Shown one piece after another: positions 13,396-54,881 of a DNA stretch of 64,000 nt. Source of the DNA: a virus; IMG/VR virus record IMGVR_UViG_3300040809_000464, positions 24,676 to 88,675 of that record. One strand, 5' to 3'. The position numbers were made by a program, and so were the translations under genes. How positions within the stretch are numbered: position 1 is the first letter of the stretch; each line of letters starts with the position of its first letter. The notes under the pieces are model-generated. The model made no database searches. It worked only from the letters and a program-made list of their open reading frames with translations, and was not told the DNA's origin.

Positions 13396-13426
13396 CATTT
13401 AAAATAAAATTAAAAAGGAGACTCTC

Positions 13427-13492
13427 ATGGGTTCTACAACTACACCTAAACGTGGCGGCGGTACTAAACCTAAAAAACCTTCTAACCGTTAA
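13427..13492 (+). CDS. 21-residue basic peptide
   Basis: AAAAAGGAG lies 6 bases before the ATG, the best ribosome site in the neighbourhood. The product (MGSTTTPKRGGGTKPKKPSN + R) is Gly/Lys/Pro-rich and basic. The strong signal argues that it is translated. Function unknown; it could touch nucleic acid or be a virion component. Confidence 0.5.
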   Translation: MGSTTTPKRGGGTKPKKPSNR

Positions 13493-13511
13493 CTTAATAT
13501 TGTAGGTCAAG

Positions 13512-14045
13512 ATGGATATACAAGCTTTCCTAAATACACATTTAATAGACTCTATCTTTATTAGTTTATATTTAATATTAACGCTGATTTATATAAAGTC
13601 TAGGAAGGCTTTTATTCCTCTAGTGTTATCGATTTCAGTAGGATTACCTCTATTCTTTGTAACTAAATATGTAGAGGTATTTGAAAGTATTGAGCATATG
13701 TGGAGGTTCTACTTCATAATGACAATACTAGACTTTGGAGCTTTCTCAGTAGTTACATCTTCATATATAGATCTTAAAAAGAGAGCAGGCTTTTATATAA
13801 AGTTTGGATGTGCTTCTCTAATGATAGCATCTTTCTTCTCTCTAGTAGAGACAGCGTTTAACATAGAAAGAAACTCTATCAGTGATATCTTCTATAAGGT
13901 TATAACTCCATTAGCTCATATTCTCATAATAGTTAACCTGTTCAGAATAGGAGATCAATGTGTCAAAGGATTACCTGATAGCAGTGTTTCTAGGGATAGT
14001 GTTAGTAATAAGAGTAGTACGGATAATAGTGGAGGCTTACCGTGA
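13512..14045 (+). CDS. Polytopic membrane protein (177 aa)
   Basis: About five hydrophobic segments (around residues 12-27, 34-50, 66-85, 95-110 and 130-145) and a Ser-rich hydrophilic C-terminal tail. Its stop overlaps the next ATG by 4 bases (ATGA). No family is recognised. With the next gene it may form a holin pair or a superinfection-exclusion system, which is inference from topology only. Confidence 0.55.
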   Translation: MDIQAFLNTHLIDSIFISLYLILTLIYIKSRKAFIPLVLSISVGLPLFFVTKYVEVFESIEHMWRFYFIMTILDFGAFSVVTSSYIDLKKRAGFYIKFGCASLMIASFFSLVETAFNIERNSISDIFYKVITPLAHILIIVNLFRIGDQCVKGLPDSSVSRDSVSNKSSTDNSGGLP

Positions 14046-14362
14046 TGATCAATGTAATGGAGAGATTGAGTCGAGTACTAACGGAACATCCGATTACTGA
14101 TAAACTTACAGTGCAGACTACAGCGATTGCTTCTGGAGCTGGTACTGTTGCAGTGGATACGATGGTACAAGCACAACCTGAAATGTGGTTTGGTTTTACT
14201 ATAGTTGATTGGGCTGCAATCTTCTCAATCTGTTTGGCGTTAATAGCTCTAGGGAAGGAAGTCTTTAAAGGTATTAGAACGTTTAAGAATTTTCTTGAGA
14301 AGAGAAAACAAAAGAAATTAGAAGAACAACAAGAAAAGGAGACTCCAAGCAATGACTTGTGA
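14042..14362 (+). CDS. Small membrane protein, holin candidate (106 aa)
   Basis: Contains a clear transmembrane helix (WAAIFSICLALIALG, ~residues 57-71), possibly a second weak one (TTAIASGAGTVAV), and a strongly charged C-terminal tail with a KRKQKK cluster. That layout is common in class II/III holins. It is translationally coupled to the preceding membrane protein and overlaps the next gene by 11 bases. No endolysin is adjacent, which weakens the holin call. Confidence 0.45.
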   Translation: MMINVMERLSRVLTEHPITDKLTVQTTAIASGAGTVAVDTMVQAQPEMWFGFTIVDWAAIFSICLALIALGKEVFKGIRTFKNFLEKRKQKKLEEQQEKETPSNDL

Positions 14363-14840
14363 TATTTCTCCACCAGACTTTACTACAGAACTTGGTAAGG
14401 TCAGATACTATTCGGGTGATAGAACTCTTAATGAGAATGGGCAGTATATCATCCCCGATGCAGTGATATTAGAAATACTAGATATGTATGCTGATAAGCC
14501 TTCCTCTTGGAGAGTTTACTACGCTACATTAGATACACTCTTAATGATGAAAACAACCTTTGCCCCTTATGCAGCTAGAAGCAGAGAACGTGAAGGTAGT
14601 GTTGAGGTTGAATTGTATGGTAATGAACGTTATCAGAATATCTGTGACCTGTATGATTGGTTTAGGAAGAAGCCTGACATCATCGTTAAAGACGCTGTAC
14701 AAGGTTCTATCATCATAGGTGGTGTTCGTATAGATAAATACTGTGATGTATTGACTGATGCGAATGGTCTTTATAAAGGCTCTCGTATTGATGATATCTA
14801 TAAAGTTCCAGTTACTTCTAAGGCTCATAAACAACCATAA
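14352..14840 (+). CDS. Head-tail adaptor-like protein (162 aa)
   Basis: Soluble helical protein at the start of the neck genes. An N-terminal PDFTTELGKVRYYSG segment followed by helices around residues 38-70 is compatible with gp6/gp15-like adaptors that bind the portal. The next genes are tail completion, head closure and tail terminator candidates, so an adaptor is the missing function here. The call is by position and helical content. Confidence 0.5.
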   Translation: MTCDISPPDFTTELGKVRYYSGDRTLNENGQYIIPDAVILEILDMYADKPSSWRVYYATLDTLLMMKTTFAPYAARSREREGSVEVELYGNERYQNICDLYDWFRKKPDIIVKDAVQGSIIIGGVRIDKYCDVLTDANGLYKGSRIDDIYKVPVTSKAHKQP

Positions 14841-35246: not shown

Positions 35247-35275
35247 ATTTTAGTTGTATTTGTTATTTATGTCAA
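35247..35275 (-). promoter_or_regulatory. Sigma70 promoter for the rdgC-like gene
   Basis: Leftward TTGACA (35275-35270), 17 bases, TAAAAT (35252-35247). The -35 box overlaps the end of the HNH endonuclease gene, so the promoter may predate or have been carried by that insertion. Confidence 0.75.
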
Positions 35276-35865
35276 GGGTTTCTTTCTAAATACTTTTCAA
35301 GTCTCCATTCAGGTAGACCTTTTAGTTCTTCCGTAACGAACTCCACCCATTCAGGATTACTTCTACCATTGTATACACTTGAGATAGTGGTACGTGCAAA
35401 ACCTAAGATATCTGCTGTTTCCTTCACACCTTTACCGAGTAACTTATACACCACTGCTTTAGTTCTATCCTCATCAGTTAACTGTTTAGTCTTCCCACGA
35501 GGTTTATTGTTAATCTTACCATCACGGACACCTTGAACAGTATTCTCCTTCTGTGTACCCCATGCGAGATTGCTTATGTGGTTATTCTTAGAATTATGAT
35601 CTAAGTGCATCACTTGAGGTTTGTCCTCTGGGTTAGGGAGGAATGCTTTAGCTACTAGGCGGTGAACATAGCATCTATCGTATAATCTTTTACCCTTACA
35701 ATCCTTACCCTTATACATCTGGACATACATATAACCTGAACCATTATCACCCGGCTTCATTACCTTTTCTTTCCACAGGGAATACACTCTGCCATAATTA
35801 CTGATCTTATAATTACTGTTTATCTCTACCGTTTCCCATACTTCATTTTCTAAATTTTCAACCAT
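35272..35865 (-). CDS. HNH homing endonuclease with NUMOD4 domain
   Basis: 197 residues. Residues ~8-35 are a NUMOD4 motif (EVWETVEINSNYKISNYGRV). Residues ~65-105 are the HNH core: YVHRLVAKAFLPNP, then VMHLDHNSKNNHISNLAWGTQ. A helix-turn-helix follows at ~125-160 (KGVKETADILGFARTTIS). This is the F-TflIV/I-HmuI-like domain order of free-standing phage homing endonucleases. It lies between polymerase and rdgC genes, a common target location. Confidence 0.88.
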   Translation of the reverse strand: MVENLENEVWETVEINSNYKISNYGRVYSLWKEKVMKPGDNGSGYMYVQMYKGKDCKGKRLYDRCYVHRLVAKAFLPNPEDKPQVMHLDHNSKNNHISNLAWGTQKENTVQGVRDGKINNKPRGKTKQLTDEDRTKAVVYKLLGKGVKETADILGFARTTISSVYNGRSNPEWVEFVTEELKGLPEWRLEKYLERNP

Positions 35866-35878
35866 TTCACCACCCCTT

Positions 35879-38572
35879 CTAATGGCATTCTGCCCAATCT
35901 CTACCTATTATATAACCTGCTGTTAACTCTATATTTAACTTGTAATAGTCTCCAGTTCTTTGAACTGCTTCTGCTGCTAATTGCCCAGCTTTACTGTAAG
36001 CCACAAACACACACTTGTCATTAGCTACAATATCACTCCAGATCTTACTGTTACTTTTAAACTCCGTATCTTTAAACTGTTGTGCTTCCTGTTTAAGTTT
36101 CTTAGTATGTAGTTTCTTGTCATCTTTATCCATATCTTTAAAACCTTCTGGATAATTAAATATCTTGAAAGTGACTTGATCCTTATTTACTTCTAGTTGT
36201 GCCTCATCGTGCATCGCTATCATTTGCTGGCAAAAGTCTTTTTTCTTCCAATCATCTTTAAAGAAATCAACTATTAGGTTATTCTCTCTGAGTAGCTCTT
36301 CATGTATTACCATCGCACGTTTAGCAGCTATAACACCAGCAGACTGAAAAGCAGTGTTTATTACATTACCTTTAGATCTCACAGGTAACTTCCTACCGTC
36401 TAACCCTAATAGGAACTTCTTCTGACCTTTTGTTTCCCAGTATCTCTGCATATTCTTCTTAAGCTGGTTAAGGGGGAACGCTTGATCCCAGAAAGTATCG
36501 AATATTACCTGAGCAGTTGGTAAATCACAACCTACGGTCCTTGCCACACGAGGAGGTTGAGCATTATAACTACAGCCATATTTAACACTCTTAGCAGATC
36601 CTCTAGGGAAATCAGTACCTAGTAGGTCAGATATCTTTTCAGCTAATTTAGTATGACAATCATTAGGCTTTTCTAAAGTAAGTGAATTACAATACTCTTT
36701 AGTAGGGTCATAGCGCCAACAATAATGCGACTCTATCTTAGCTTCTAAACTATCAAAGTCATAACCTATCTGATAATACCCTTCACCAGCACCAAATAGT
36801 GACCTCATATTACTACCATACAGAGAAGTTACCCTAGGTATGTTAGCTACAACCCTGTGTTTCATCCTAGAAGTAGCTGCATCACAAGTACCTGCTGGTG
36901 TAGCTATTCTACCATCTTCTCTGATATAAGCCATGTAACCTTTTTCAGCTTCCCCTTCTTCGTCCCATTCAAGACCACCACCTAAGATACTATTACGTCT
37001 ATGCTTGTAAGTCATATACTCTACGATATTTCTAGCGTAGGGGAACTTATCAGATAACTTATCAAGATTAGGACATATCTCTTTTTCTTGACCCTTAGTA
37101 AAGTTTGGATTTGTAGGTACTTTACACATACCACCGTCTTTAGTACGTAAAAGCTTAGCCTTCAACCTTGTACGTGTTGTCTCTAGGAGGTCTAACCTTT
37201 CTTTACAAAGTGGTGAATTCAATGTTTCTTCTACATACTTATCTACAGCTTCTTCAAACTCTTGTCTAGTTCTTTTAATCTTAGCTGTTTTAGTTTTTCT
37301 TTCATACAGATCCTTCTCTTTGAATTCACTAGGGACCCAACCAAACTCCTCAACAAGCCATCCTTTTATATGGGTAGAGTCATTGATAGTTGCAACCATA
37401 CTGGTCTTTACAGGTTCTAAGTCCATTGGTAGTGCATATGTTTTACCATATAAAGTTACTTCTGTATTGGCTTCATTAACACTACCTTCATGTCTATCTA
37501 AAAAGTTAACCATATGATTAGATAGTGTACGTTCTTCTTTTATTACAGTACCTTGTTTAATAGGTAAAGTATATGTCTTACCATATAAGGTACATTTACG
37601 GTCATCCAATAACTTCCCATTGTTCTTGTCAATGAACTTTAACATGATAGCACTTACATCACCACTCTTTTTAAACTGGGTCTTAGGTGGCTCTACTGTA
37701 ACTACCTTTACCTGATTTACTGGTGGAGTATGATCAGATAAGAATTTCTTTGTAGCTTTTCTAGGAGGAAGAACTGGCTCTACTGTAACTCTATGCTCTT
37801 CCATCATCTTATCTAACTCTTCAACAGAATCTTCTGCCAGTTTCCTATTAAAAGCAAAACCTCTATGTTCTTGTCTGGTAACAATATCCGCTACTTTCTT
37901 TTCAAGTCTGATCGGGTCATCCCATTCCCAGTTACCTTTCTCCTTCTCTAAGTATTTATACACCTTAGTATTTACAAGAACATCCCTGATACAGTAGTAC
38001 AACATATCTGCTGCAAACTCTTCAAACTTCTTTTGTTTGTCCTTGATATAGGGTCTGAAATCTATCTTACGTAAACCCACCTTCTCTGACAAGTTATCAA
38101 GACTATGCCCACCAAACCTATCAGGATTTAACGTCTTAGACAGTACCATTGTATCAACTATCTCGGTAGGTTTACCACACCAAGAGTCAGGCTCTACTTG
38201 ATAATCCATACCGTAGTAAAGTTTACAAACAAGATGATCATAGTTAATCCCATTGTGAGCCACCACCTTATTTATTTTATTACTTTCAATATAAGATTTA
38301 AACTCGTTCAACTGTTTATGTACATACTTGACAGGCTTATAATTCTCCAAGACGTAATCTACATCAATAGATCGACCTTTCTCAGAGTATTTCCTCCCAT
38401 CAAGTTCATAAGTATCACCATTATAGAAAGCAATGATCTCTCCAGTCTGGTGGTTCTCTGTAACAATACAATGCATCTTAAAAGAGTTTTTCAACTTGTA
38501 CGGTGAACTTAGGTAATCAATCGTATTATGGTTAAGTAAGTTATTAGCCTCTATATCGAAAGTAATATCCAA
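35879..38572 (-). CDS. Family A DNA polymerase with 3'-5' exonuclease (T7 gp5-like)
   Basis: 897 residues versus 704 in T7. Exonuclease motif I is FDIEAN (Asp6, Glu8), motif II VVAHNGINYDH, motif III YYCIRDVLVNTKVY. Polymerase motif A is YDFDSLEAKIES (about 602-613), motif B RGSAKSVKYGCSYN (about 654-667) and motif C AMHDEAQLEV (about 784-793). The extra length lies between exonuclease and palm (about 240-450). It carries two similar segments, TLYGKTYTLP and TLYGKTYALP, that look like an internal duplication. Replicates the phage genome. Confidence 0.93.
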   Translation of the reverse strand: MDITFDIEANNLLNHNTIDYLSSPYKLKNSFKMHCIVTENHQTGEIIAFYNGDTYELDGRKYSEKGRSIDVDYVLENYKPVKYVHKQLNEFKSYIESNKINKVVAHNGINYDHLVCKLYYGMDYQVEPDSWCGKPTEIVDTMVLSKTLNPDRFGGHSLDNLSEKVGLRKIDFRPYIKDKQKKFEEFAADMLYYCIRDVLVNTKVYKYLEKEKGNWEWDDPIRLEKKVADIVTRQEHRGFAFNRKLAEDSVEELDKMMEEHRVTVEPVLPPRKATKKFLSDHTPPVNQVKVVTVEPPKTQFKKSGDVSAIMLKFIDKNNGKLLDDRKCTLYGKTYTLPIKQGTVIKEERTLSNHMVNFLDRHEGSVNEANTEVTLYGKTYALPMDLEPVKTSMVATINDSTHIKGWLVEEFGWVPSEFKEKDLYERKTKTAKIKRTRQEFEEAVDKYVEETLNSPLCKERLDLLETTRTRLKAKLLRTKDGGMCKVPTNPNFTKGQEKEICPNLDKLSDKFPYARNIVEYMTYKHRRNSILGGGLEWDEEGEAEKGYMAYIREDGRIATPAGTCDAATSRMKHRVVANIPRVTSLYGSNMRSLFGAGEGYYQIGYDFDSLEAKIESHYCWRYDPTKEYCNSLTLEKPNDCHTKLAEKISDLLGTDFPRGSAKSVKYGCSYNAQPPRVARTVGCDLPTAQVIFDTFWDQAFPLNQLKKNMQRYWETKGQKKFLLGLDGRKLPVRSKGNVINTAFQSAGVIAAKRAMVIHEELLRENNLIVDFFKDDWKKKDFCQQMIAMHDEAQLEVNKDQVTFKIFNYPEGFKDMDKDDKKLHTKKLKQEAQQFKDTEFKSNSKIWSDIVANDKCVFVAYSKAGQLAAEAVQRTGDYYKLNIELTAGYIIGRDWAECH

Positions 38573-38584
38573 AATAAACTCCTA

Positions 38585-40354
38585 TTAAAAATCTTCTATA
38601 GTTTCTTCTACAGGTTTACCATTAGGATACATACTATACCATTCTTGTAGTGTTTGGCAAGAGTCATCTTCAAGGAAACCTTCTGGTGGTTCTACATAAT
38701 CCCCAGTGTCTACATCATAGAACATAGGTATCTTACCAGTGCGTCCATGTTTACGATCATCTAGTAGTACCATATGACTAGTGTTAATCTCTTTCTCAGA
38801 CAATTCTGGATCTTTATTACGTTCAATACCGATTAAATAATACGCGGCTCTCATCATTGCTCTACTGCCTGTAAACTGACTAGATACTACCTTACCACCA
38901 AACTCATGAGATGGTCCTTGAGATGGTGCTTTAAGGTGGCAGAAGCAGTAATAAGTGAAACCTAGATCTTTACTCATCTTACTAATTTCATCTGCAAAGC
39001 GCTCTAATTCAGTTGAAGCTTCAGAGGCAGACATACCAGAAGTTAGCCTCGTAATAGGATCAATAATGATATCTTCAATATGTTCTACCAACACAGCATG
39101 ACGTATAGCTCCTTTAAGCTCATCCCAATGACATCGACCATAGTTATTATACATAACCAGTCGTGGACCAATGGTATCAACAGCGTAGTCTAATTCTTCT
39201 TGAGTGAAGTATGTATCACGGTACTTAATATCTTCACCCCAGATATCATGCTCTCTTCCTGCTTCATCTATGAAGAGAATCTTCTCAGGGTTAGAAAAGT
39301 CTTTCTTGAAGAACTTACCAGCCACTTTCTTAATAGTGATATCTGGTTGTTCTTCAAATTTAAAGACTGCTACCTTTTGAGGTTCACCTAGACTGTTCTT
39401 ATCATTCTCTGTGATGTGTTGGATAAGCTTATTAGCCCACTCGCTCTTACCTTGCTTTACCCCGGCACCAATATAGTATCCCTCACCAAGTCGTCTTCCT
39501 AGAGTTTTACGGTACAGGGTTTCCCACGGCCATGCTTTACCAAGAATAGGCATCTCTTTAGCTTTGTTCTCAACTTCCTCATAACGTACAAACCCTTCAG
39601 GTGTAAACCTAATAGGTTTCATAACCATCCAGTATAGTTCTTTAGGTGTTAACTCATTATACACTTCACAAGGGTCTTTACCTTCAGGCAGAGGTGCTAC
39701 AAGGATGTCTGGAATAAGACCGTATACATCTGCTGTGGCTTCATTGCCTTTCTTGATTCCTTTCTCTTTTTCTTCTACTGTCGCCCTATCATTATCGAAC
39801 ACGGTAATCTTCTCAGGGAACTTATTGAGAAACTTCATATTCATTTTCTGACCTATGTGCTGGACAGCATTAGCAGTGCCAAACCCGATACTCAATACAG
39901 TAGGATTACCTCTTGGGTATTCATCCTTAAGAGTTTGGTGAACAATCATAGAATCATATTCACCTTCACAGATCCATACTTTCTTACCGCCTGTAGAATT
40001 ACCGCAATGAGTACCGAACAACTTAACTACATCTACCTTTACAAGACCTACGATTGAGAAGTGCCCTTTTTCTTTCTTGTGCTTAGTTAGATCGCGCTTC
40101 TTGAACCCTACAATTTGATCAGACTCATCATAATAAGGGAAGTAATGTGCAATTGGTGTAGATCCATCCTCAGTGCTTAATGCTGTACGTACACCGTAAT
40201 GTTCTGCTGTCTTTTGAGTGATGTTTCTATCAGGGATTGCTAAACACTGATACCCTAAGACATCTTCTACCGTTTCTTTTTCGTAAGACATACTCTCTCC
40301 TCTTTTCTTAGAAGTAAATGCTTCTGGAGCTGTATAACCTTGAGTGTACCCCAT
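38585..40354 (-). CDS. DNA primase-helicase (T7 gp4-like, no zinc domain)
   Basis: 589 residues. Toprim primase: WICEGEYDS (Glu130) and VFDNDRA (about 185). RecA-like helicase: Walker A GAGVKQGKSE (about 297-306), FKFEEQP, Walker B IIIDPITRL (about 429), CFCHLKAP and GSRAMMRAAYYLIG. The N-terminal zinc-binding domain of T7 gp4A is absent. A second in-frame ATG at residue 22 (40291) has a much stronger ribosome site, GAGGAGAG, so the true or a second start may be there. Unwinds DNA at the fork. Confidence 0.9.
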   Translation of the reverse strand: MGYTQGYTAPEAFTSKKRGESMSYEKETVEDVLGYQCLAIPDRNITQKTAEHYGVRTALSTEDGSTPIAHYFPYYDESDQIVGFKKRDLTKHKKEKGHFSIVGLVKVDVVKLFGTHCGNSTGGKKVWICEGEYDSMIVHQTLKDEYPRGNPTVLSIGFGTANAVQHIGQKMNMKFLNKFPEKITVFDNDRATVEEKEKGIKKGNEATADVYGLIPDILVAPLPEGKDPCEVYNELTPKELYWMVMKPIRFTPEGFVRYEEVENKAKEMPILGKAWPWETLYRKTLGRRLGEGYYIGAGVKQGKSEWANKLIQHITENDKNSLGEPQKVAVFKFEEQPDITIKKVAGKFFKKDFSNPEKILFIDEAGREHDIWGEDIKYRDTYFTQEELDYAVDTIGPRLVMYNNYGRCHWDELKGAIRHAVLVEHIEDIIIDPITRLTSGMSASEASTELERFADEISKMSKDLGFTYYCFCHLKAPSQGPSHEFGGKVVSSQFTGSRAMMRAAYYLIGIERNKDPELSEKEINTSHMVLLDDRKHGRTGKIPMFYDVDTGDYVEPPEGFLEDDSCQTLQEWYSMYPNGKPVEETIEDF

Positions 40355-40781: not shown

Positions 40782-41807
40782 TTACTTGAAAAGAGGGACC
40801 ACTAAAACAGTAGTTCTATTTTCTTTTACTTCTACAAGTTGATCATTATTAAATGTATACTCCCAACAGTATGTATCTCCATCAGGGTAGACCGATTTAG
40901 TCTTATTACCTTTAGAGTCATACTCCCAACAGTATGTACGCCCATTAGGGTGGACCAATTTAGTCTTATTACCTTTAGAGTCATACTCGTAACAGTATGT
41001 ACGCCCATCAGGGTAGACCTCTTTAGTCATATTACCTTTAGAGTCATACTCCCAACAGTGTGTATCTCCATCAGGGTGGACCTCTTTAGTCATATTACCT
41101 TTAGAGTCATACTCCCAACAGTATGTACGCCCATTAGGGTGGACCAATTTAGTCTTATTACCTTTAGAGTCATACTCGTAACAGTATGTACGTCCATCAG
41201 GGTAGACCTCTTTAGTCATATTACCTTTAGAGTCATACTCCCAACAGTATGTACGCCCATTAGGGTGGACCGATTTAGTCTTATTACCTTTAGAGTCATA
41301 CTCCCAACAGTATGTACGCCCATTAGGGTGGACCAATTTAGTCTTATTACCTTTAGAGTCATACTCGTAACAGTATGTATCTCCATCAGGGTAGACCGAT
41401 TTAGTCTTATTACCTTTAGAGTCATACTCCCAACAGTGTGTATCTCCATCAGGGTAGACCGATTTAGTCTTATTACCTTTAGAGTCATACTCCCAACAGT
41501 ATGTACGCCCATTAGGGTGGACCAATTTAGTCTTATTACCTTTAGAGTCATACTCGTAACAGTATGTACGTCCATCAGGGTAGACCTCTTTAGTCATATT
41601 ACCTTTAGAGTCATACTCATGTACAGGTCTTTCTTTTAACCATTCAACATAAGAATTGAAATCCCCTTTAACGTTTTGTAATTGGTCAAGAGGAAACCCT
41701 TCAAGACCATTTCTCTTAAAGAACACTATACCTTCAGAACAAGCTTTATGTTGTTTTAAATATTCTAAAGTTAATAAATTCTCAGATGTGTTTAATTCTT
41801 TTGACAT
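40782..41807 (-). CDS. YD-type tandem-repeat protein, 12 repeats (341 aa)
   Basis: A 63-residue N-terminal domain (LTLEYLKQHKACSEGIVFF, then VKGDFNSYVEWLK), twelve 21-residue repeats of the form EYDSKGNxTKxVxPxGxTYCW, and a 26-residue cap ending VVPLFK. A paralogue with six repeats lies at 54249 on the other strand. Repeats recall YD/RHS or MORN-like beta rungs, but no RHS core or toxin domain is present. The N-terminal AC-x-x-G-I-x-FF motif recalls the heads of phage pentapeptide-repeat proteins. Function unknown. TTGACA/TATAAT-like boxes lie upstream. Confidence 0.75.
   Translation of the reverse strand: MSKELNTSENLLTLEYLKQHKACSEGIVFFKRNGLEGFPLDQLQNVKGDFNSYVEWLKERPVHEYDSKGNMTKEVYPDGRTYCYEYDSKGNKTKLVHPNGRTYCWEYDSKGNKTKSVYPDGDTHCWEYDSKGNKTKSVYPDGDTYCYEYDSKGNKTKLVHPNGRTYCWEYDSKGNKTKSVHPNGRTYCWEYDSKGNMTKEVYPDGRTYCYEYDSKGNKTKLVHPNGRTYCWEYDSKGNMTKEVHPDGDTHCWEYDSKGNMTKEVYPDGRTYCYEYDSKGNKTKLVHPNGRTYCWEYDSKGNKTKSVYPDGDTYCWEYTFNNDQLVEVKENRTTVLVVPLFK
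40863..41618 (-). repeat. 12 x 63-bp tandem repeat
   Basis: Near-identical DNA copies, for example repeated CTTATTACCTTTAGAGTCAT on the + strand, differing by a few linked changes. The high DNA identity indicates recent expansion or homogenisation; copy number probably varies between isolates. Confidence 0.95.
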
Positions 41808-45163: not shown

Positions 45164-45192
45164 TTGACATATTAATGTTTCCATGTTATAAT
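45164..45192 (+). promoter_or_regulatory. Consensus sigma70 promoter before the XRE gene
   Basis: Perfect TTGACA, 17 bases, perfect TATAAT, ending 32 bases before the XRE start. The best promoter match noticed in the window, expected to be very strong and therefore probably regulated. Confidence 0.85.
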
Positions 45193-45224: not shown

Positions 45225-45440
45225 ATGAATAGTGTTGAAATTAAAGAGCATTTAATAGCTCACATCAAAGAAGAAATGTTTAAGAAAAACTTGACCCAGG
45301 AAGAAGTTGGTAAGATGGTTGGACGATCAAGAGCTTATATATCCGCCATATTACAAGGTAAATCAAGTATAGAGAAACTAGTAACTGTATTAGAGTGTTT
45401 AGGCTTAGAGATCACTTTAATGGTGTTGAATAATAAGTAG
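45225..45440 (+). CDS. XRE-family helix-turn-helix regulator (71 aa)
   Basis: Residues ~22-60 are a lambda-repressor-like HTH: KNLTQEEVGKMVGRSRAYISAILQG followed by SSIEKLVTVLECLGLEI. The final strand (ITLMVLN) resembles dimerisation strands of small antitoxin-like XRE proteins. It may repress its own consensus promoter. No partner toxin lies next to it. Confidence 0.8.
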   Translation: MNSVEIKEHLIAHIKEEMFKKNLTQEEVGKMVGRSRAYISAILQGKSSIEKLVTVLECLGLEITLMVLNNK

Positions 45441-45464
45441 TTGATTTCTGTATATTATTTAATC

Positions 45465-45546
45465 TAGGGAAAATTAAGTAAAACCTCTACAGGCTACGTA
45501 TACCGTGGTCTGTAGCTATTTTAGTACCCTCTCGGTGCTTTCCCTA
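45465..45546 (+). ncRNA. Candidate structured RNA, three-way junction
   Basis: Perfect 8-bp closing stem TAGGGAAA (45465)/TTTCCCTA (45539). Inside is a 12-bp hairpin (CTACAGGCTACG pairing with CGTGGTCTGTAG, two G-T pairs, TATAC loop). Then comes a 5-bp hairpin GTACC/GGTGC with a CTCTC loop, directly next to the closing stem as a tRNA T-arm would be. It lacks T-loop and D-arm sequences, so it is not a normal tRNA. The long hairpin followed by CTATTTTA could alternatively be an intrinsic terminator of the XRE transcript. Confidence 0.5.
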
Positions 45547-45615
45547 ATGTAATAACTATCATTCTATTACTATATATATACTCTTATCTTACTATCTATT
45601 ACTTACACTGTTACT

Positions 45616-45652
45616 CCTTAGAGGTTACTCTTTAAGGATCTACTCTAAAGAG
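45616..45652 (+). promoter_or_regulatory. Two competing hairpins at the ribosome site of the polymerase-like gene
   Basis: CTCTTTA (45628) pairs with TAAAGAG (45646), covering the AAGAGG ribosome site. An alternative upstream fold pairs CCTTA (45616) with TAAGG (45633) plus GAG/CTC, using the same CTCTTTA arm and freeing the ribosome site. This is the layout of a translational on/off switch. Confidence 0.45.
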
Positions 45653-45662
45653 GTTTACCTTA

Positions 45663-47027
45663 ATGGAACAACTATATACAAGATTATATTACTCATCTAA
45701 GAAACTATATAAACTTAACTCTTACTTCTATAAGTTATATAAACTACATTACTCTATTAATAGTTTTACTAACTCTAAGAGTGCAATAGATTGTTTCTCT
45801 TATAATATGGTAAGATGTTTAAAGTATAATAAAGATGCTCTATCTATCACAACAAAGGATATTTACTATAAAGATATTATAATCAATGGTAAGAGTGTTA
45901 GATCTGGAGTAGGTGCTGTAGCTACACGTAATATCTTAAATATGTTAGTGAAAGAAGGACTGATACAATGGGATAAAGGTTACAGGTATGATGATAACAG
46001 TAGGGAGTTAGGTAAAATTACATTGACTCAAGATTTTATTGTTGATATACTAAGTAAAGTGAATATAGAAGATGTAACTATTAGACCTGATCTAAATGTG
46101 CTAATATTAAGAGATAAGAGTAAGAATCAAATAGAGTTTGAACACAGTAGGAAGATTACAAATATGATTAGTGATTTACAAGATTACAATAAGTTCATGA
46201 ATAGCTTTGACGTAAGAGATTACCAAGGTGATAAGATTAATACTGATTTAACTCGAATCTTTAATGAAGACTTTGAACACGGTGGTAGACTTTATACTGG
46301 CGCTGGAGGGTATCAGCAAATACCTAGTCACTTAAGGAAAGGTATCACTATAGACGGTGAATACTTAAAAGAGATTGATATTAAAGGTTCTCACATAGCT
46401 ATCTTATACACCCTTGAAGGACATATACTTGGTAAAGGTTATGACCCGTACCAGATTGATGAAGTGGATGCAATTGACTACACTATGGAGTATGGTTTGG
46501 CACAAGAATATATAGATGAAAAGTATGATCCTAAGCGGAATATCATTAAGCTTGCTCTTGTTGTAATGATTAACTCTAAATCTAGACAGGCAGCTATTAA
46601 GGCACTTACCAATAAGGTTAACAAGGCTAATAAGAATACTATTATTAGTTACCTAGAAAGATTAGATGATTTAAGACTTGACACACCAGAAGCTAAAGGG
46701 TTAATATCTGAGATGCAGTCTTTAAAGTATACAGGCATTGTTGTGGAAGATATGTCTAAACTATTAGATGCTATTGAACATAAGCACAAAGCTATAAAGA
46801 AGTATTTCTATACTGGTGTTGGCTTAGTAGGTCAGAAACTTGAAGGGGATATTATGCAGAGTACATTGACAGAGTTGAAAGATAAAGGTTTACCTTCACT
46901 GTGTATTCATGATAGTATTATGGTTAGAGAAGGTGATATACCTACTGCTGTATTGGCTTTAAGAGATGCTTGGGGTTGTTGTGTAGGGGATACATACAAT
47001 TTAAGTTTGACAGACAATTTATATTAA
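45663..47027 (+). CDS. Compact polymerase-like protein (family A/T7 RNAP-related, TV-Pol-like)
   Basis: 454 residues. Motif A-like YLKEIDIKGSHIAIL (about 236-250), motif B-like RNIIKLALVVMINS (Arg, Lys at +4, Asn where family A has the Tyr) and motif C-like CIHDSIMV (about 413). HDS is the form used by T7 RNA polymerase, whereas family A DNA polymerases have HDE. The N-terminal ~180 residues are Tyr/Lys/Asn-rich, with a winged-helix-like segment (VATRNILNMLVKEGLIQW). This is consistent with the TV-Pol group described as related to both families. Activity (DNA or RNA, priming or transcription) is unknown. Confidence 0.55.
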   Translation: MEQLYTRLYYSSKKLYKLNSYFYKLYKLHYSINSFTNSKSAIDCFSYNMVRCLKYNKDALSITTKDIYYKDIIINGKSVRSGVGAVATRNILNMLVKEGLIQWDKGYRYDDNSRELGKITLTQDFIVDILSKVNIEDVTIRPDLNVLILRDKSKNQIEFEHSRKITNMISDLQDYNKFMNSFDVRDYQGDKINTDLTRIFNEDFEHGGRLYTGAGGYQQIPSHLRKGITIDGEYLKEIDIKGSHIAILYTLEGHILGKGYDPYQIDEVDAIDYTMEYGLAQEYIDEKYDPKRNIIKLALVVMINSKSRQAAIKALTNKVNKANKNTIISYLERLDDLRLDTPEAKGLISEMQSLKYTGIVVEDMSKLLDAIEHKHKAIKKYFYTGVGLVGQKLEGDIMQSTLTELKDKGLPSLCIHDSIMVREGDIPTAVLALRDAWGCCVGDTYNLSLTDNLY

Positions 47028-47525: not shown

Positions 47526-47681
47526 ATGGATATGCCGACACCATGCCCTGAGTGCGGAGATATTGTAGAATTTAACAATATGATGAGAACAGAAGGTAAA
47601 CTATGCTACCATACCTTTGTCTGTGAATATTGTTATGACGAGTTAGAAAGTGATGAAGAAGAGTGGGAGGAGGAAGAATGA
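47526..47681 (+). CDS. Small zinc-ribbon-like protein (51 aa)
   Basis: Two CxxC pairs (CPEC near residue 7, CEYC near 35) form a likely zinc ribbon, followed by a nearly pure acidic tail (DEEEWEEEE). Start chosen at the ATG preceded by AGGAGACT; overlaps the ligase start by 4 bases. Confidence 0.6.
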   Translation: MDMPTPCPECGDIVEFNNMMRTEGKLCYHTFVCEYCYDELESDEEEWEEEE

Positions 47682-51156: not shown

Positions 51157-51193
51157 TTACGTATTGAATTTGAGAGGAGAGATTGATATTCCT

Positions 51194-51859
51194 ATGGATA
51201 AAAGAAAGAAAACATGTAAAGATAAATATGAAGGTACTAGTTGGAGTAGTAATAATTTTGGTGACTTTGAGATATTAGAGTATTTTAATTATCATAAGGT
51301 AAAGATAAAATTTATAACCACAGGTTATACCACGCATGCTAAGATGGATAAGATAAGAAGAGGTAAAGTTAAAGATAAATTATTACCTTCGGTGTATGGA
51401 GTAGGCTACCTAGGTGATGGTCCCTACTCTGCATCTTTAATTGGTAAATACACTAAAGTATACTACACATGGCGTGCAATGCTTCAAAGATGCTACTGTT
51501 CTATGTATCAAGAAAATAAACCAACATATGAAGGTTGTACAGTAGCAGATGAATGGCATAACTTCCAGAACTTCGCTAAATGGTTTGAAGATAACTATAT
51601 AGAAGGTTATGAACTTGATAAAGATCTTAAAGTGGAGGGTAATAAAATATATAGCCCAGAAGCTTGTATGTTTGTTAGTAAACAACATAATACGGAAAAG
51701 GCTAATGCTAAACATTATAAAGTTCTAAGTCCTAGGGGTGAGGTGATTAATATCTACAACATGGCTAAGTTTTGCAGGGATAATAGTTTAAACCTTAGTA
51801 GTATGTATAAAGTACTTAATGGTAAATCAAGCCACTATAAAGGTTGGACAAAAACATAA
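51194..51859 (+). CDS. Homing-type endonuclease A (221 aa)
   Basis: N-terminal ~60 residues with YEGTSWSSNNFGDFEILEY resemble a DNA-binding module. The core (about 75-160) reads YYTWRAMLQRCY...YEGCTVADEWHNFQNFAKWF...YELDKDL...YSPEACMFVS, the W-x-x-M-x-x-RCY/W-x-x-F-x-x-F/LDKD pattern of an HNH-like phage homing family. The last ~45 residues (IYNMAKFCRDNSLNLSSMYK, ending YKGWTK) form an IENR1-type helix-turn-helix. Paralogue of the gene at 52646. The start has GGAGAG 13 bases upstream. Confidence 0.78.
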   Translation: MDKRKKTCKDKYEGTSWSSNNFGDFEILEYFNYHKVKIKFITTGYTTHAKMDKIRRGKVKDKLLPSVYGVGYLGDGPYSASLIGKYTKVYYTWRAMLQRCYCSMYQENKPTYEGCTVADEWHNFQNFAKWFEDNYIEGYELDKDLKVEGNKIYSPEACMFVSKQHNTEKANAKHYKVLSPRGEVINIYNMAKFCRDNSLNLSSMYKVLNGKSSHYKGWTKT

Positions 51860-51884
51860 CGTCATTTACAGGATTAAACATGAG

Positions 51885-52004
51885 ATGCTTAAACAAGGAT
51901 TCTCTTGGGAGTATGTTCTTATAGAGGTAGGCTGCATAGGTCTGGCTTTGATATGTTACCGTATGTACAACTATCACGATTATCTTGAGAGGAAAACTAA
52001 ATGA
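51885..52004 (+). CDS. Small single-helix membrane protein (39 aa)
   Basis: MLKQGFSWEY then VLIEVGCIGLALICYRMY, one transmembrane helix, and a short charged tail. Overlaps the lipoprotein start by 4 bases. Earlier in-frame starts would run back into the endonuclease gene. The ribosome site is poor, so the exact start is uncertain. Confidence 0.45.
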   Translation: MLKQGFSWEYVLIEVGCIGLALICYRMYNYHDYLERKTK

Positions 52005-52192
52005 AGAAAATACTACCAATAGCTCTTGTACTGATCCTGACAGGGTGTAAAACTCATGGAGATACAGCACAAGAAAATAAACACCTCTGCGATAATCACG
52101 GAGGTTATCAGACATGGACGTATACTAAAAGTAGAACCTTTACACTCATCCTTTGCAAAGATGGATCTGTAAAGTGGGCTGACCTCCTCTAG
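52001..52192 (+). CDS. Small predicted lipoprotein (63 aa)
   Basis: KK-charged N-terminus, hydrophobic ILPIALVLIL, then lipobox LTGC with the lipidated Cys at residue 16. The 48-residue mature part is polar with two more cysteines (HLCDNHGG, LILCKDG) that could form a disulfide. With the preceding membrane peptide it might act on the envelope, for example in superinfection exclusion. It lacks the Pro-rich look of Rz1. Confidence 0.6.
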   Translation: MKKILPIALVLILTGCKTHGDTAQENKHLCDNHGGYQTWTYTKSRTFTLILCKDGSVKWADLL

Positions 52193-52197
52193 AATCC

Positions 52198-52263
52198 ATT
52201 CTAAGAAGACTTCTCTTCAAAGTAATACCATTACCGCACCCTTCTAGTAAAACCTCTTAGAAT
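52198..52263 (+). ncRNA. Two-copy RNA-like element, copy 2
   Basis: CTAAGAAGACTTCTCTTC then AAAGTAATAC, closed by a perfect 9-bp stem ATTCTAAGA (52198)/TCTTAGAAT (52255). Relative to copy 1, one C-G pair is replaced by T-A, a compensatory change. Beyond the conserved ~32 bases the interior differs. Confidence 0.45.
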
Positions 52264-52275
52264 CAATCTGAGAGG
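52253..52275 (+). terminator. Hairpin overlapping the 3' arm of copy 2
   Basis: CCTCTTAGA/TCTGAGAGG (9 bp with one G-T, ATCAA loop). Shares the TCTTAGA arm with the closing stem of copy 2, so the two folds exclude each other. No clear T-tract follows, so termination is uncertain. Confidence 0.4.
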
Positions 52276-52321
52276 GTTCCATACTTAAACATATATCCGC
52301 TAAAAGATTCCCTAAAAAGTG

Positions 52322-52350
52322 TTGACAGAGGGTTTCTTTGTATGTATGAT
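52322..52350 (+). promoter_or_regulatory. Sigma70 promoter
   Basis: TTGACA, 17 bases, TATGAT, ending 36 bases before the next start. Confidence 0.75.
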
Positions 52351-52385
52351 CGTTGTAAGATTAATTGAGAGGAGTAGTGTTAAAT

Positions 52386-52649
52386 ATGAAAGACAACCAA
52401 CAAAACACTATCTACAGCAAATGGCGTAGGTCTGAAGCTTATATAGTTCCAATGACTTCAGAGGGTATCTCTAAAGCAGGACACCGTTATGATAACTTCA
52501 AGGTAGGTTTTGAATACGGAATGACCTATGCTATGGAAATCTTAGAAGAGTTACACAGGGAGAACAAAGACGTTCATAAGTTTTACCTGTTAGCTAAGAA
52601 CGCTGTAGATGAAGCTAGAAAGAATTGTAAAGAGAGGAGTGAGAGATGA
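52386..52649 (+). CDS. Hypothetical protein (87 aa)
   Basis: Start at the ATG 11 bases after GAGGAG; an upstream TTG includes that site. Helical, with GFEYGMTYAMEILEELHREN; charged C-terminus. The next start lies inside its stop region (ATGA overlap). Confidence 0.5.
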   Translation: MKDNQQNTIYSKWRRSEAYIVPMTSEGISKAGHRYDNFKVGFEYGMTYAMEILEELHRENKDVHKFYLLAKNAVDEARKNCKERSER

Positions 52650-53320
52650 ATAAACGAATATTAAAGCAGAAAGAGAAGTATGAAGGAACTTCATGGCTTA
52701 GTAACAAGTGCGGAGATTTTATTATAATAGAGTATATAAACGCTAGATCAGTTGTTTTAAGATTTACTAAGACAGGTTATATAACAATAACAGATCTGTA
52801 CTCTATAAAGAAAGGTAAGGTTAAAGACAGGTTACACCCTTCGGTATCTGGTGTAGGTTTTGTAGGTGAAGGGGTTTACACTCTTTACAATAGCATTAAA
52901 ATTTATTATTTGTGGGCGGCTATGTTAGGGAGGTGTTATGATAAAAAATGCCATGAAAATTATTCAACATATATAGACTGTACAGTCACTCCCGAATGGC
53001 ACAACTTCCAGAACTTTGCTAAATGGTGTGAGGATAATTATATTGAAGGATATCACCTAGATAAGGATATTAAAGTTGAAGGTAATCGGGTTTATGGACC
53101 CGACACTTGTATGTTTGTTAGTCCACAAGAGAATACCGAGAAAGCTTGTGCGAAATATTGGAAATTTGTAAGTCCAGAAGGTAAAGTTGTTGAGATTTAT
53201 AATATAGCTAAGTTTTGTAGGGAAAAAGGTTTAAATCGTACCAATATGTATGGTGTACATCAAGGTAAACAAAGTAATCACAAAAGTTGGACTAAATATG
53301 TAGAAGAGGTCTTGGGATGA
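52646..53320 (+). CDS. Homing-type endonuclease B (224 aa)
   Basis: Paralogue of the 51194 gene over its full length: N-terminal YEGTSWLSNKCGDF, core YYLWAAMLGRCY...TVTPEWHNFQNFAKW...LDKDIKVEG...CMFVS, and C-terminal IYNIAKFCREKGLNRTNMYG with HKSWTK. AGAGGAGTGAGAG leader gives a firm start. The two copies flank the small membrane peptide, lipoprotein, RNA element and 87-residue gene. Confidence 0.78.
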   Translation: MNKRILKQKEKYEGTSWLSNKCGDFIIIEYINARSVVLRFTKTGYITITDLYSIKKGKVKDRLHPSVSGVGFVGEGVYTLYNSIKIYYLWAAMLGRCYDKKCHENYSTYIDCTVTPEWHNFQNFAKWCEDNYIEGYHLDKDIKVEGNRVYGPDTCMFVSPQENTEKACAKYWKFVSPEGKVVEIYNIAKFCREKGLNRTNMYGVHQGKQSNHKSWTKYVEEVLG

Positions 53321-53517
53321 AGAATGAAGCTATTGAAGAATTAAAACTAGCACGGCAACAGATAGGTACATTAGAAGATATTAACATACTGTATCGTGAT
53401 GCAATTAATCAAATAGATGCTTACTTTGTAGAGGAGTATGAGTCGGATACGGACAGATACTTTGTGGATGGTGTGTTACACTCTTTAACTATCAAGTTGA
53501 AACACTTACAGAAGTGA
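53317..53517 (+). CDS. Small coiled-coil protein (66 aa)
   Basis: Overlaps endonuclease B by 4 bases. Almost entirely helical (AIEELKLARQQIGTLEDI) with an acidic middle. Function unknown. Confidence 0.5.
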   Translation: MKNEAIEELKLARQQIGTLEDINILYRDAINQIDAYFVEEYESDTDRYFVDGVLHSLTIKLKHLQK

Positions 53518-53524
53518 GGAAATA

Positions 53525-54172
53525 ATGGAAAAACTAAATACTGATCTTGAACCTTATCGTGTTGTACCTAACTGGAATGAAGCACCAGAAGGAACCACAC
53601 ATGCAGAATATATCGAACCGTGTTCTCTGACAGAAGGCGATCCTAATAGGCAACTGTGGGAATGGTATAAATATGATGGAACTAACAATTTCTACTGGAG
53701 AGATGGTTGGCAGAGAGATACATTGTTTAGTGATGTAGGGTTTAGTGAAACTGTTAGGGTACGCCCTCTAAGTGAATACCTGTTATGGAAACTTGGTAAG
53801 GGTACTGTCTGGAACTATCTTTCAATAAGAAAATATACAATTCTAACACTTACTAACTTAGAATCTACCAACCCTTCAGGATTCCCTTATACAGTAGTGT
53901 ACAAGGATAGTGATGGTCGTGTATGGTCTAAGTCTGTATATGAATGGATGGATAAGTTTACCTATGACAGTTCCTATGAAGAGAACCTAGCAGATGAAGC
54001 TGAGAAGTTGGCTAAGGTGTTGTGTGTACGAGATGGTAAGGATGTGGACGACTGTTATGATACCTTTGATAGAGGAGATTACAATGCAGAGCCACATATA
54101 ACGTATGTCTGGGAACATTACCTACAAGATGCTTACAACTTTTTAGAACTAAAAAGAGAGCTGAATTATTAG
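53525..54172 (+). CDS. Hypothetical early protein, two-domain (215 aa)
   Basis: N-terminal part with VVPNWNEAPEGTTHAEYIEP, a W-x-x-APEGTTH motif recurrent in small phage proteins, and aromatic FYWRDGWQRD. The second part (YTILTLTNL, VVYKDSDGRVWSKSVYEWM) looks like a small phage strand-rich domain. Acidic overall. Function unknown. Confidence 0.55.
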   Translation: MEKLNTDLEPYRVVPNWNEAPEGTTHAEYIEPCSLTEGDPNRQLWEWYKYDGTNNFYWRDGWQRDTLFSDVGFSETVRVRPLSEYLLWKLGKGTVWNYLSIRKYTILTLTNLESTNPSGFPYTVVYKDSDGRVWSKSVYEWMDKFTYDSSYEENLADEAEKLAKVLCVRDGKDVDDCYDTFDRGDYNAEPHITYVWEHYLQDAYNFLELKRELNY

Positions 54173-54189
54173 ACTTATTTAATTTGTGG

Positions 54190-54218
54190 TTGACTTAACA
54201 GTAAAGACGTATTAATAT
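54190..54218 (+). promoter_or_regulatory. Sigma70 promoter for the six-repeat gene
   Basis: TTGACT, 17 bases, TAATAT (a TATAAT lies 5 bases further). Confidence 0.65.
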
Positions 54219-54248
54219 ATAATCATATTTTATATGAGGAGAGATAAT

Positions 54249-54881
54249 ATGAACAAACATGAAACATTAACGCTGGAGTATTTAAAACAACATAGCGCTT
54301 GTACTGATGGGATTGAATTCTTTAAACGTGCAGGTCTTACAGGATACCCATTATCTAAACTGAAAGACGTTAAAGGGGATTACAATGAGTATGTTGAATG
54401 GTTAAAAAATATGCCTCTATACGAGTACAACGATAAAGGTTTGATGACTAAAGAGACTTATCCTAATGGAGATGTACACTTATGGAAGTACAACGATAAA
54501 GGTTTGATGACTAAAAAGACTTTCCCTTCTGGAAATGAATACTTATATGAGTACAACGATAAAGGTTTGAAGACTAAAGAGACTTTCCCTAATGGAGATG
54601 TATGTTTATACGAATACAACGATAAAGGTTTGAAGACTAAAGAGACTTTCCCTTCTGGAGAGGTATACTTATACGAATACAACGATAAAGGATTGAAGAC
54701 TAAAGAGACTTATCCTAATGGAGATGTATCCTTGTGGGAATACAACGATAAAGGTTTGAAGACTAAAGAGACTTATCCTAATGGAGATGTACACTTATGG
54801 GAATACACTTTCAAGCATGGACAACTTGTAGAGATGAAAGAAAATGGTAATACTATTTTAGAGATCCCACTTTTTAAGTAA
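54249..54881 (+). CDS. YD-type tandem-repeat protein, 6 repeats (210 aa)
   Basis: Start at the ATG after GAGGAGAG. A 58-residue N-terminal domain (LTLEYLKQHSACTDGIEFF, VKGDYNEYVEWLK) is clearly homologous to the 41807 gene, followed by six 21-residue repeats EYNDKGLKTKETFPNGDVxLY (shorter motif) and a cap ending LEIPLFK. Repeat bodies differ in sequence from the other paralogue, so arrays expanded separately from a shared head and cap. Each has its own promoter. Function unknown. Confidence 0.75.
   Translation: MNKHETLTLEYLKQHSACTDGIEFFKRAGLTGYPLSKLKDVKGDYNEYVEWLKNMPLYEYNDKGLMTKETYPNGDVHLWKYNDKGLMTKKTFPSGNEYLYEYNDKGLKTKETFPNGDVCLYEYNDKGLKTKETFPSGEVYLYEYNDKGLKTKETYPNGDVSLWEYNDKGLKTKETYPNGDVHLWEYTFKHGQLVEMKENGNTILEIPLFK
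54423..54800 (+). repeat. 6 x 63-bp tandem repeat
   Basis: Units share TACAACGATAAAGGTTTGA and differ by a few bases; same period as the array at 40863 but different sequence. Confidence 0.93.

What the first reader, a model, noticed from the sequence alone, without database searches (positions are those of the whole stretch)
45663..47027. Compact polymerase-like protein with T7 RNAP-style HDS motif
The protein shows three ordered motifs: E-I-D-x-x-G-S-H, R-x3-K-x7-N, and I-H-D-S. They match motifs A, B and C of family A DNA polymerases and T7-like RNA polymerases in 454 residues. Seen: the motifs and their order. Known: Iyer, Abhiman and Aravind described a polymerase family related to both groups (TV-Pol). 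Inference: this is a member, and it may supply primers or late transcription, since the helicase lacks a primase zinc domain and no T7-type RNA polymerase is in the window.
Basis: partly seen in the sequence, partly recalled or inferred. Interest (0 to 1): 0.75.

Follow-up and report, generated by a model that had tools for sequence, protein, structure and literature searches.

The report
Extra minimal phage DNA polymerase, divPolA2-type
This phage gene encodes a stripped-down second polymerase of a family named only in 2024 and not known to have been tested in the laboratory; relatives are swapped in and out of phage genomes together with a small gene just upstream, often a DNA-binding one, and one sits in the well-studied cholera phage ICP1, where its role could be tested.

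Summary
The ORF (45663-47027 +, 454 aa) and its motifs are real. It matches phrog_4756 (E 2e-67), the family described in 2024 as divPolA2 (PMC11348598): divergent family-A polymerases carried beside the main DNA polymerase, one to three per phage. This phage has a second copy outside the window and a normal PolA with exonuclease. In 75 aligned members both catalytic Asp and the motif-B Lys are invariant. An AlphaFold2 model (pLDDT 90.6) matches only family-A DNA polymerases in the PDB top 50; no T7-like RNA polymerase appears there. 'HDS' does not diagnose an RNA polymerase: A, E and G occur in place of S, and the residue at the Pol I sugar-gate position is His (66/75), not the Gly of T7 RNAP. 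The TV-Pol idea is partly right: a phage-only divPolA2 profile finds integrase- or transposase-linked plasmid proteins of TV-Pol type (E 1e-46 to 3e-50). New here: the N-terminal domain resembles a winged helix (weak support); a small HTH gene is enriched directly upstream; polymerase and upstream gene are exchanged between near-identical phages. Best reading: an accessory, non-proofreading DNA polymerase for priming or gap-filling. Late transcription is unsupported but not excluded.

The parts
45663..47027 (+). divPolA2 / TV-Pol-like polymerase gene, 454 aa
   Evidence: ORF; phrog_4756 E 2.3e-67; AF2 model pLDDT 90.6; PDB fold matches
45768..46025 (+). N-terminal domain core (residues 36-121), predicted winged-helix-like
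   Evidence: Domain model pLDDT 84.4; PDB top 50 mostly winged-helix regulators (MarR, CodY, PadR types) and ribosomal proteins, best E only 0.025
46257..46298 (+). Beta-hairpin with R209 (GGRLY), resembling the Pol I GRL motif (about residues 199-212)
   Evidence: R in 74 of 75 members; strands 196-201 and 207-212 in the model
46371..46394 (+). Motif A, E237-I-D239-I-K-G-S-H244; D239 catalytic, H244 at the sugar-gate position (D+5)
   Evidence: D 75/75, H 66/75; strand 233-240
46536..46574 (+). Motif B in the fingers helix, R292-x3-K296-x7-N304
   Evidence: R 73/75, K 75/75, N 69/75; helix 290-304
46908..46916 (+). Motif C, H416-D417-S418; D417 catalytic
   Evidence: H 73/75, D 75/75, S 67/75; lies between strands 413-415 and 418-422
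45225..45440 (+). 71-aa XRE-type helix-turn-helix protein, likely partner or regulator
   Evidence: HTH_37 E 8.7e-10, HTH_3 E 2e-7; HTH genes enriched directly upstream of family members
45164..45192 (+). Perfect sigma-70-type promoter (TTGACA-17-TATAAT, TG-extended) before the HTH gene
   Evidence: 12 of 12 positions; 2 exact matches in the window, 0.14 expected
45487..45515 (+). 12-pair hairpin with a weak T tail, in the 222-nt gap between the HTH gene and the polymerase; terminator- or attenuator-like
   Evidence: the 45441-45690 stretch folds with z -4.3; leader structure is not a family-wide feature
35879..38572 (-). Context: the main family-A DNA polymerase with 3'-5' exonuclease domain
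   Evidence: PF00476 E 5e-15, PF01612 E 8e-7; phrog_17 E 1.4e-106
38585..40354 (-). Context: T7 gp4-type primase-helicase without a zinc-binding motif
   Evidence: phrog_239 E 8e-132; no CxxC

Best explanation
The gene encodes an accessory, template-dependent DNA polymerase of the divPolA2 family, the tailed-phage branch of the TV-Pol-like minimal family-A polymerases. It keeps the palm and fingers (D239 and D417 holding two metal ions; R209, R292 and K296 handling template, primer and incoming nucleotide) and lacks an exonuclease. Its N-terminal domain, where other family-A enzymes carry exonuclease and thumb parts, looks like a winged helix and probably grips DNA. It is not the replicative enzyme, which is the exonuclease-bearing PolA at 35879-38572. 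I infer that it makes short DNA tracts, either primers (in a phage whose primase-helicase lacks the zinc domain) or gap-filling and repair patches. The gene is probably transcribed early by host RNA polymerase from the consensus promoter ahead of the small HTH gene, which I infer regulates or assists it. Shown by computation: family, motifs, fold, missing exonuclease, second polymerase, HTH enrichment, cassette exchange. Inferred: DNA rather than RNA product, priming or repair role, HTH function, timing.
For: phrog_4756 E 2.3e-67 for this protein and 1.8e-91 for AUR84708, the published divPolA2 representative (PMC11348598). Catalytic residues invariant in 75 members. AF2 pLDDT 90.6; PDB top 50 all family-A DNA polymerases, best E 3.3e-6; BFVD top 11 are full-length matches at TMq 0.50-0.77, those with names being family members. 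A separate PolA in this genome and PF00476 hits in 33 of 41 genomes that carry the family. PF00940 RNA polymerase in 2 of 42. Bulky residue at the D+5 sugar-gate position, as in DNA polymerases, instead of the Gly of T7 RNAP (T7 residues from established knowledge and the T7 sequences aligned). HTH directly upstream, 8 of 71 against 0 of 148 control ORFs, Fisher p 9e-5. Consensus sigma-70 promoter.
Against: No activity has been measured, to my knowledge, for any member. The Pol I Tyr that pairs with the Glu gate is Asn here (69/75), so sugar choice cannot be read off with confidence. The published comparison for AUR84708 also found RNA polymerases among structural neighbours. Foldseek TM-scores to solved polymerases are low (about 0.3 over the whole chain). 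The winged-helix call rests on weak matches (best E 0.025). Cassette exchange is unusual for a housekeeping repair enzyme. HTH genes were recognised in only about 11 of some 48 loci, several of them related.
Confidence: 0.65

Rival explanations
1. A compact single-subunit RNA polymerase that transcribes late or accessory phage genes, as the first reader and the 2024 authors suggested, with the HTH protein as a promoter-recognition subunit.
For: HDS motif C as in T7 RNAP; 40 of 42 family-bearing genomes, this one included, show no T7-like RNA polymerase; a winged-helix-like N-terminus and HTH partners would suit promoter recognition. The published structural comparison placed mitochondrial and N4 RNA polymerases among the hits (PMC11348598).
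Against: HDS is not diagnostic (A/E/G variants) and plasmid relatives have it too. No Gly at D+5. No RNA polymerase in the PDB top 50; one at rank 41 in BFVD. Profile matches to T7 and N4 RNA polymerases are insignificant. Two members coexist with a nearby T7-like RNA polymerase (KASIA, L077). The number of copies varies and cassettes are swapped, odd for a sole late polymerase.
Confidence: 0.17
2. A true primase-polymerase that starts DNA chains without a primer, as CcPol-MP does with its SSB-fold partner; the small upstream protein or the N-terminal domain would hold the single strand.
For: TV-Pol relatives were predicted to be primases (PMC2579912) and CcPol-MP was shown to prime (PMC7581432, PMC10061031). 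The primase-helicase here lacks a zinc motif and no DnaG zinc ribbon is in the record.
Against: No OB-fold or SSB-like partner was recognised next to the gene. CcPol has Glu at the gate (PMC7581432), this protein His. Host DnaG could prime. One to three copies per phage are not explained.
Confidence: 0.3
3. An arms-race module (counter-defence or superinfection exclusion) whose polymerase activity modifies or fills in particular DNA, regulated by its HTH protein, with alleles exchanged under selection.
For: Polymerase plus upstream gene is replaced as a block between near-identical ICP1 isolates, with flanks 100% and 98.8% identical, and within Plateaulakevirus. Variable copy number and decayed copies. 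HTH of HigA type upstream in some.
Against: No direct link to any defence system; the catalytic site is strictly conserved; the 2024 authors interpret exchange of polymerases in general as possible defence avoidance, which does not need this role.
Confidence: 0.2
4. A catalytically dead relic or structural protein.
For: Some copies in other phages carry internal stops or are 47-residue remnants.
Against: D239, K296 and D417 are 75/75 across very divergent members; this copy and its paralog are intact.
Confidence: 0.03

Closest known systems
divPolA2 (Virol J 2024, PMC11348598; barbaviruses and many Vibrio and Aeromonas phages)
   Same: Same profile family (phrog_4756); same architecture of N-terminal globular domain plus palm/fingers without exonuclease; extra to a regular polymerase; paralogs; variable neighbourhood
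   Different: This protein belongs to the majority His-gate/HDS group, whereas the modelled representative AUR84708 belongs to a small Glu-gate/FDE clade; HTH partner, winged-helix reading, TV-Pol link and cassette exchange were not reported in the section I read
TV-Pol (Iyer, Abhiman, Aravind 2008, PMC2579912)
   Same: Minimal family-A core, hairpin Arg, two Asp, RxxxK, no nuclease; N-terminal extra domain in a subset; significant profile match to integrase- or transposase-linked plasmid relatives
   Different: No D5 helicase, resolvase, integrase or transposase partner here; lies in a large tailed phage with its own PolA; the one published TV-Pol phage examined (Ma-LMM01) gives only a marginal match (E 0.0009)
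CcPol-MP of SCCmec (PMC7581432, PMC10061031)
   Same: Small family-A polymerase encoded beside a small second protein, on mobile DNA
   Different: MP is an OB-fold SSB, here the neighbour is an HTH; CcPol keeps the Pol I Glu gate; CcPol sits beside its own helicase gene
T7 RNA polymerase and N4 RNAPII
   Same: Palm fold superfamily, HD at motif C, compact size in the case of N4 gp16
   Different: No significant profile match, Gly against His at D+5, no RNA polymerase N-terminal domain

Membership tests
divPolA2 | Sequence homology with the published representative AUR84708 | tested here: met
   Both match phrog_4756 over nearly full length; one alignment and tree
divPolA2 | Palm with catalytic residues, no 3'-5' exonuclease, unrelated N-terminal domain in place of a thumb | tested here: met
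   Model and Pfam/PDB searches
divPolA2 | Encoded in addition to a regular DNA polymerase, often as paralogs | tested here: met
   PolA at 35879-38572; paralog at G000:C1:13424-14743
TV-Pol | Core with hairpin Arg, two palm Asp, RxxxK in the fingers | tested here: met
TV-Pol | Sequence relationship with TV-Pols | tested here: inconclusive
   Strong with TV-Pol-like plasmid proteins beside an integrase or IS21 genes (E 3e-50, 1e-46), marginal with Ma-LMM01 MAP_030, which I took to be the published TV-Pol from its context; the other published TV-Pol sequences could not be fetched
TV-Pol | Linked or fused D5 helicase, or resolvase/integrase/transposase neighbours | tested here: not met
   No D5_N in the record; no such genes among the neighbours examined
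TV-Pol | Thumb of two antiparallel helices | tested here: inconclusive
T7-like single-subunit RNA polymerase | PF00940 / RNAP-specific domains | tested here: not met
   No Pfam match; no PF00940 match in the genome, this gene included
T7-like single-subunit RNA polymerase | Template-dependent NTP incorporation | not testable with these tools
   Needs biochemistry
Primase-polymerase (CcPol-MP-like) | OB-fold partner encoded next to the polymerase | tested here: not met
   The upstream neighbour is an HTH; nothing OB-like recognised in the upstream set by sequence; neighbours were not folded

The most novel reading that the evidence does not exclude
divPolA2 genes travel as two-part cassettes (small, often DNA-binding, protein plus winged-helix-polymerase) that act at sequence-specific sites as a new kind of phage initiator or primer-making system, with different site specificities exchanged between sibling phages under selection.
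Probability: 0.12. Interest if true: 0.85.

Novelty: new member of a known kind. Interest (0 to 1): 0.48.

Why it matters
The family is widespread in large Vibrio, Aeromonas, Pseudoalteromonas, Shewanella and Rheinheimera phages, is mostly annotated 'hypothetical protein', and its product, DNA or RNA, is an open published question. The present data lean towards DNA, connect the family with the mobile-element TV-Pols, and show that ICP1 (gp100), a phage with working genetics, carries a member with natural allele swaps. That makes the question directly testable by deletion.

Tried and rejected
Single-sequence and profile searches of PDB sequences gave nothing, so the fold had to carry the argument. 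hhalign against three-sequence profiles of PolA and T7 RNAP, and against N4 gp16 alone, was too weak to discriminate. The search for related loci with the single protein, and with the Glu-gate clade, returned no relatives. An RNA leader as a family feature was rejected: leaders of 30 members fold no better than 120 controls, although this one has a strong hairpin; Rfam gave only a chance-level match. A standalone zinc-ribbon partner replacing the missing primase zinc domain was considered (51-aa C4 protein at 47526-47681), but such proteins are scattered without a fixed position in other loci. Tight covariation between the D+5 and K+8 positions was considered and dropped: E goes with Y in the two members of one clade, but H occurs with both N and Y. 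No ICP1 expression value for gp98-gp101 was found in the main text of the transcriptome paper.

Full report
Observation. The ORF at 45663-47027 is open for 454 codons from ATG and its reverse strand is closed. The three motifs are present as described. A fourth, GGR209-x-Y...Q, stands before motif A and resembles the Pol I GRL...LQNIP motif. Of 75 distinct family members collected from phage records, IMG/VR contigs and the window's own genome, D239, K296, D417, R225 and Y263 are invariant and R209, R292 and H416 nearly so, although lineages are mostly 16-35% identical. This is far beyond chance motif matching.

Family. The protein matches PHROG 4756 (unknown function) at E 2.3e-67 and nothing convincing in Pfam, NCBIfam or PDB sequences. 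Its relatives lie mainly in 75-145-kb Vibrio, Aeromonas, Pseudoalteromonas, Shewanella, Rheinheimera and a few Klebsiella and Pseudomonas phages. A 2024 paper (PMC11348598) describes this family as divPolA2: a divergent PolA, extra to the regular polymerase, sometimes two or three per genome, without exonuclease, with an N-terminal domain of unknown kin, possibly a repair DNA polymerase or an RNA polymerase. Its modelled representative, AUR84708 (L011:25469-26761 -), matches PHROG 4756 at E 1.8e-91. Membership is therefore tested and met. The window lies in an 88,675-bp IMG/VR record that carries a second member at 13424-14743, outside the window, 22% identical to the first.

Fold. AlphaFold2 with 36 family members gives pLDDT 90.6 and pTM 0.83. 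The 50 best PDB matches are all family-A DNA polymerases (apicoplast polymerase, Bst, Taq, Klenow, T7 DNA polymerase, Pol theta and nu; best E 3.3e-6, probability 1.00), with low whole-chain TM-scores (about 0.3). In BFVD the first 11 matches align over nearly the whole length (TMq 0.50-0.77); those with names are family members, including one labelled DNA polymerase in a barbavirus. Mostly DNA polymerases follow, with one RNA polymerase at rank 41.

DNA or RNA. T7 RNAP has Gly at the fifth residue after the motif-A Asp (D537, G542); Pol I has the sugar gate Glu710 there (established knowledge; the T7 RNAP and T7 DNA polymerase residues can be read in alignments A8 and A7). Here it is His in 66 of 75, and Q, W, E, F or S in the rest, never Gly. 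The HDS motif varies to HDA, HDG, YDE and FDE. The Pol I Tyr766 / T7 RNAP Tyr639 position is Asn in 69 of 75. I read this as leaning to DNA synthesis, but the Asn is unusual and no biochemistry exists to my knowledge. A T7-like RNA polymerase gene is found in only 2 of 42 genomes with the family, and in both it lies close to the divPolA2 gene. ICP1, which carries a member (gp100), is described as not predicted to encode an RNA polymerase and as using PolI Gp58 and primase-helicase Gp57 (PMC9040626).

TV-Pol. A profile built only from phage and window members finds a 619-aa protein on a Paracoccus plasmid, next to a tyrosine integrase gene, at E 3e-50, and a 326-aa protein on a Thioclava plasmid, next to IS21 genes, at E 1e-46, while T7 RNAP, N4 gp16, T7 DNA polymerase and the window's own PolA are not found. 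Both have the D-F-K-x-x-H motif A and HDS motif C. The N-terminal domain also aligns weakly (15 bits). These have the context Iyer and colleagues gave for TV-Pol (PMC2579912). The Ma-LMM01 protein that fits their description, MAP_030, gives only E 0.0009. So divPolA2 and at least part of the TV-Pol-like group form one homologous family, a link I did not find stated in the sections of the 2024 paper that I read. I do not file this protein as a TV-Pol outright because the defining context was tested and not met.

N-terminal domain. Modelled alone (pLDDT 84.4), its PDB neighbours are mostly winged-helix regulators (MarR, CodY, PadR types) and eukaryotic small-subunit ribosomal proteins, but with best E only 0.025. 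A DNA-binding winged helix is my inference.

Context. A 71-aa XRE-type HTH gene lies directly upstream (45225-45440), behind a perfect extended sigma-70 promoter at 45164-45192 (2 exact matches in the window, 0.14 expected). Among 71 small ORFs directly upstream of family members at least 8 match a Cro/C1-type HTH model; among 148 size-matched ORFs elsewhere in the same loci none of the 25 most common families is such an HTH (Fisher p 9e-5 if taken as 0). By eye 11 loci have one (window, L002, L004, L018, L019, L022, L024, L029, L047, L052, L083); some are related, so the p-value is optimistic, and four ORFs (L002, L021, two in L024) were added by hand. Other loci have a different 58-63-aa family in that place (L001, L008, L012, L013, L015, L028).

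Cassette exchange. Two ICP1 isolates are 100% identical over 1893 bp on the left and 98.8% over 2994 bp on the right, but between these flanks carry unrelated cassettes, each an HTH gene and a divPolA2 gene with about 18% protein identity. In Plateaulakevirus, L012 and L015 share flanks (85% and 93.5%) around polymerases only 28% identical, whereas L002 and L012 share the polymerase (92%) but differ in the upstream gene. This argues for an accessory role under diversifying or exchange pressure rather than a core replisome part.

Mechanism and verdict. Most likely an accessory DNA polymerase without proofreading that makes short tracts, for priming or gap repair. The zinc-less primase-helicase makes priming attractive but does not show it; host DnaG could serve. 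Confidence: polymerase of the divPolA2 family about 0.95; DNA rather than RNA product about 0.7; a specific role in priming or repair about 0.4. Interest is moderate: the family is already named, but its function is open, and the TV-Pol link, HTH partner, winged-helix reading and allele exchange add testable content.

Noticed in passing
G000:C1:13424-14743 (L008:1360-2724), outside the window: Second, divergent divPolA2 gene (22% identical to the window copy) with motif C HDG, preceded by a 58-aa ORF and, further up, by a 225-aa ORF that reads like a 3'-5' exonuclease/RNase T type protein (judged from sequence only).
   Followed up: partly
L018:1894-4269 and L024:2678-5293 (ICP1 isolates); L002, L012, L015 (Plateaulakevirus): HTH/small gene plus divPolA2 replaced as a block between nearly identical flanks; the small gene can also be swapped alone.
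   Followed up: partly
L077:1320-3368 and L006:1119-3758: The only two family-bearing records with a T7-like RNA polymerase have it next to or close to the divPolA2 gene.
   Followed up: no
window 40782-41807 (-): 341-aa protein made of repeated EYDSKGN-K/M-TK-x-V-x-PDG units, like YD/RHS repeats, close to the replication genes.
   Followed up: no
window 51164-54881 (+): Four ORFs of 215-231 aa in a row (51164, 52646, 53525, 54234); the first two are clearly paralogous and look like HNH/homing-endonuclease-type proteins; the other two were judged by size only.
   Followed up: no
window 35272-35865 (-): NUMOD4-HNH endonuclease gene between the RdgC-like gene and the PolA gene.
   Followed up: no
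window 47526-47681 (+): 51-aa four-cysteine zinc-ribbon-like protein two genes downstream of the polymerase, in a phage whose primase-helicase has no zinc motif.
   Followed up: partly
window 45441-45690 (+): 222-nt gap between HTH gene and polymerase with a strong hairpin (z -4.3); possible attenuator, not conserved in the family.
   Followed up: yes
W04:C1:128462-129730 and W08:C1:116817-116957: Decayed divPolA2 copies (internal stops; 47-residue remnant) in Vibrio phage 166E36-1 and Aeromonas phage vB_AceP_PAc.
   Followed up: no
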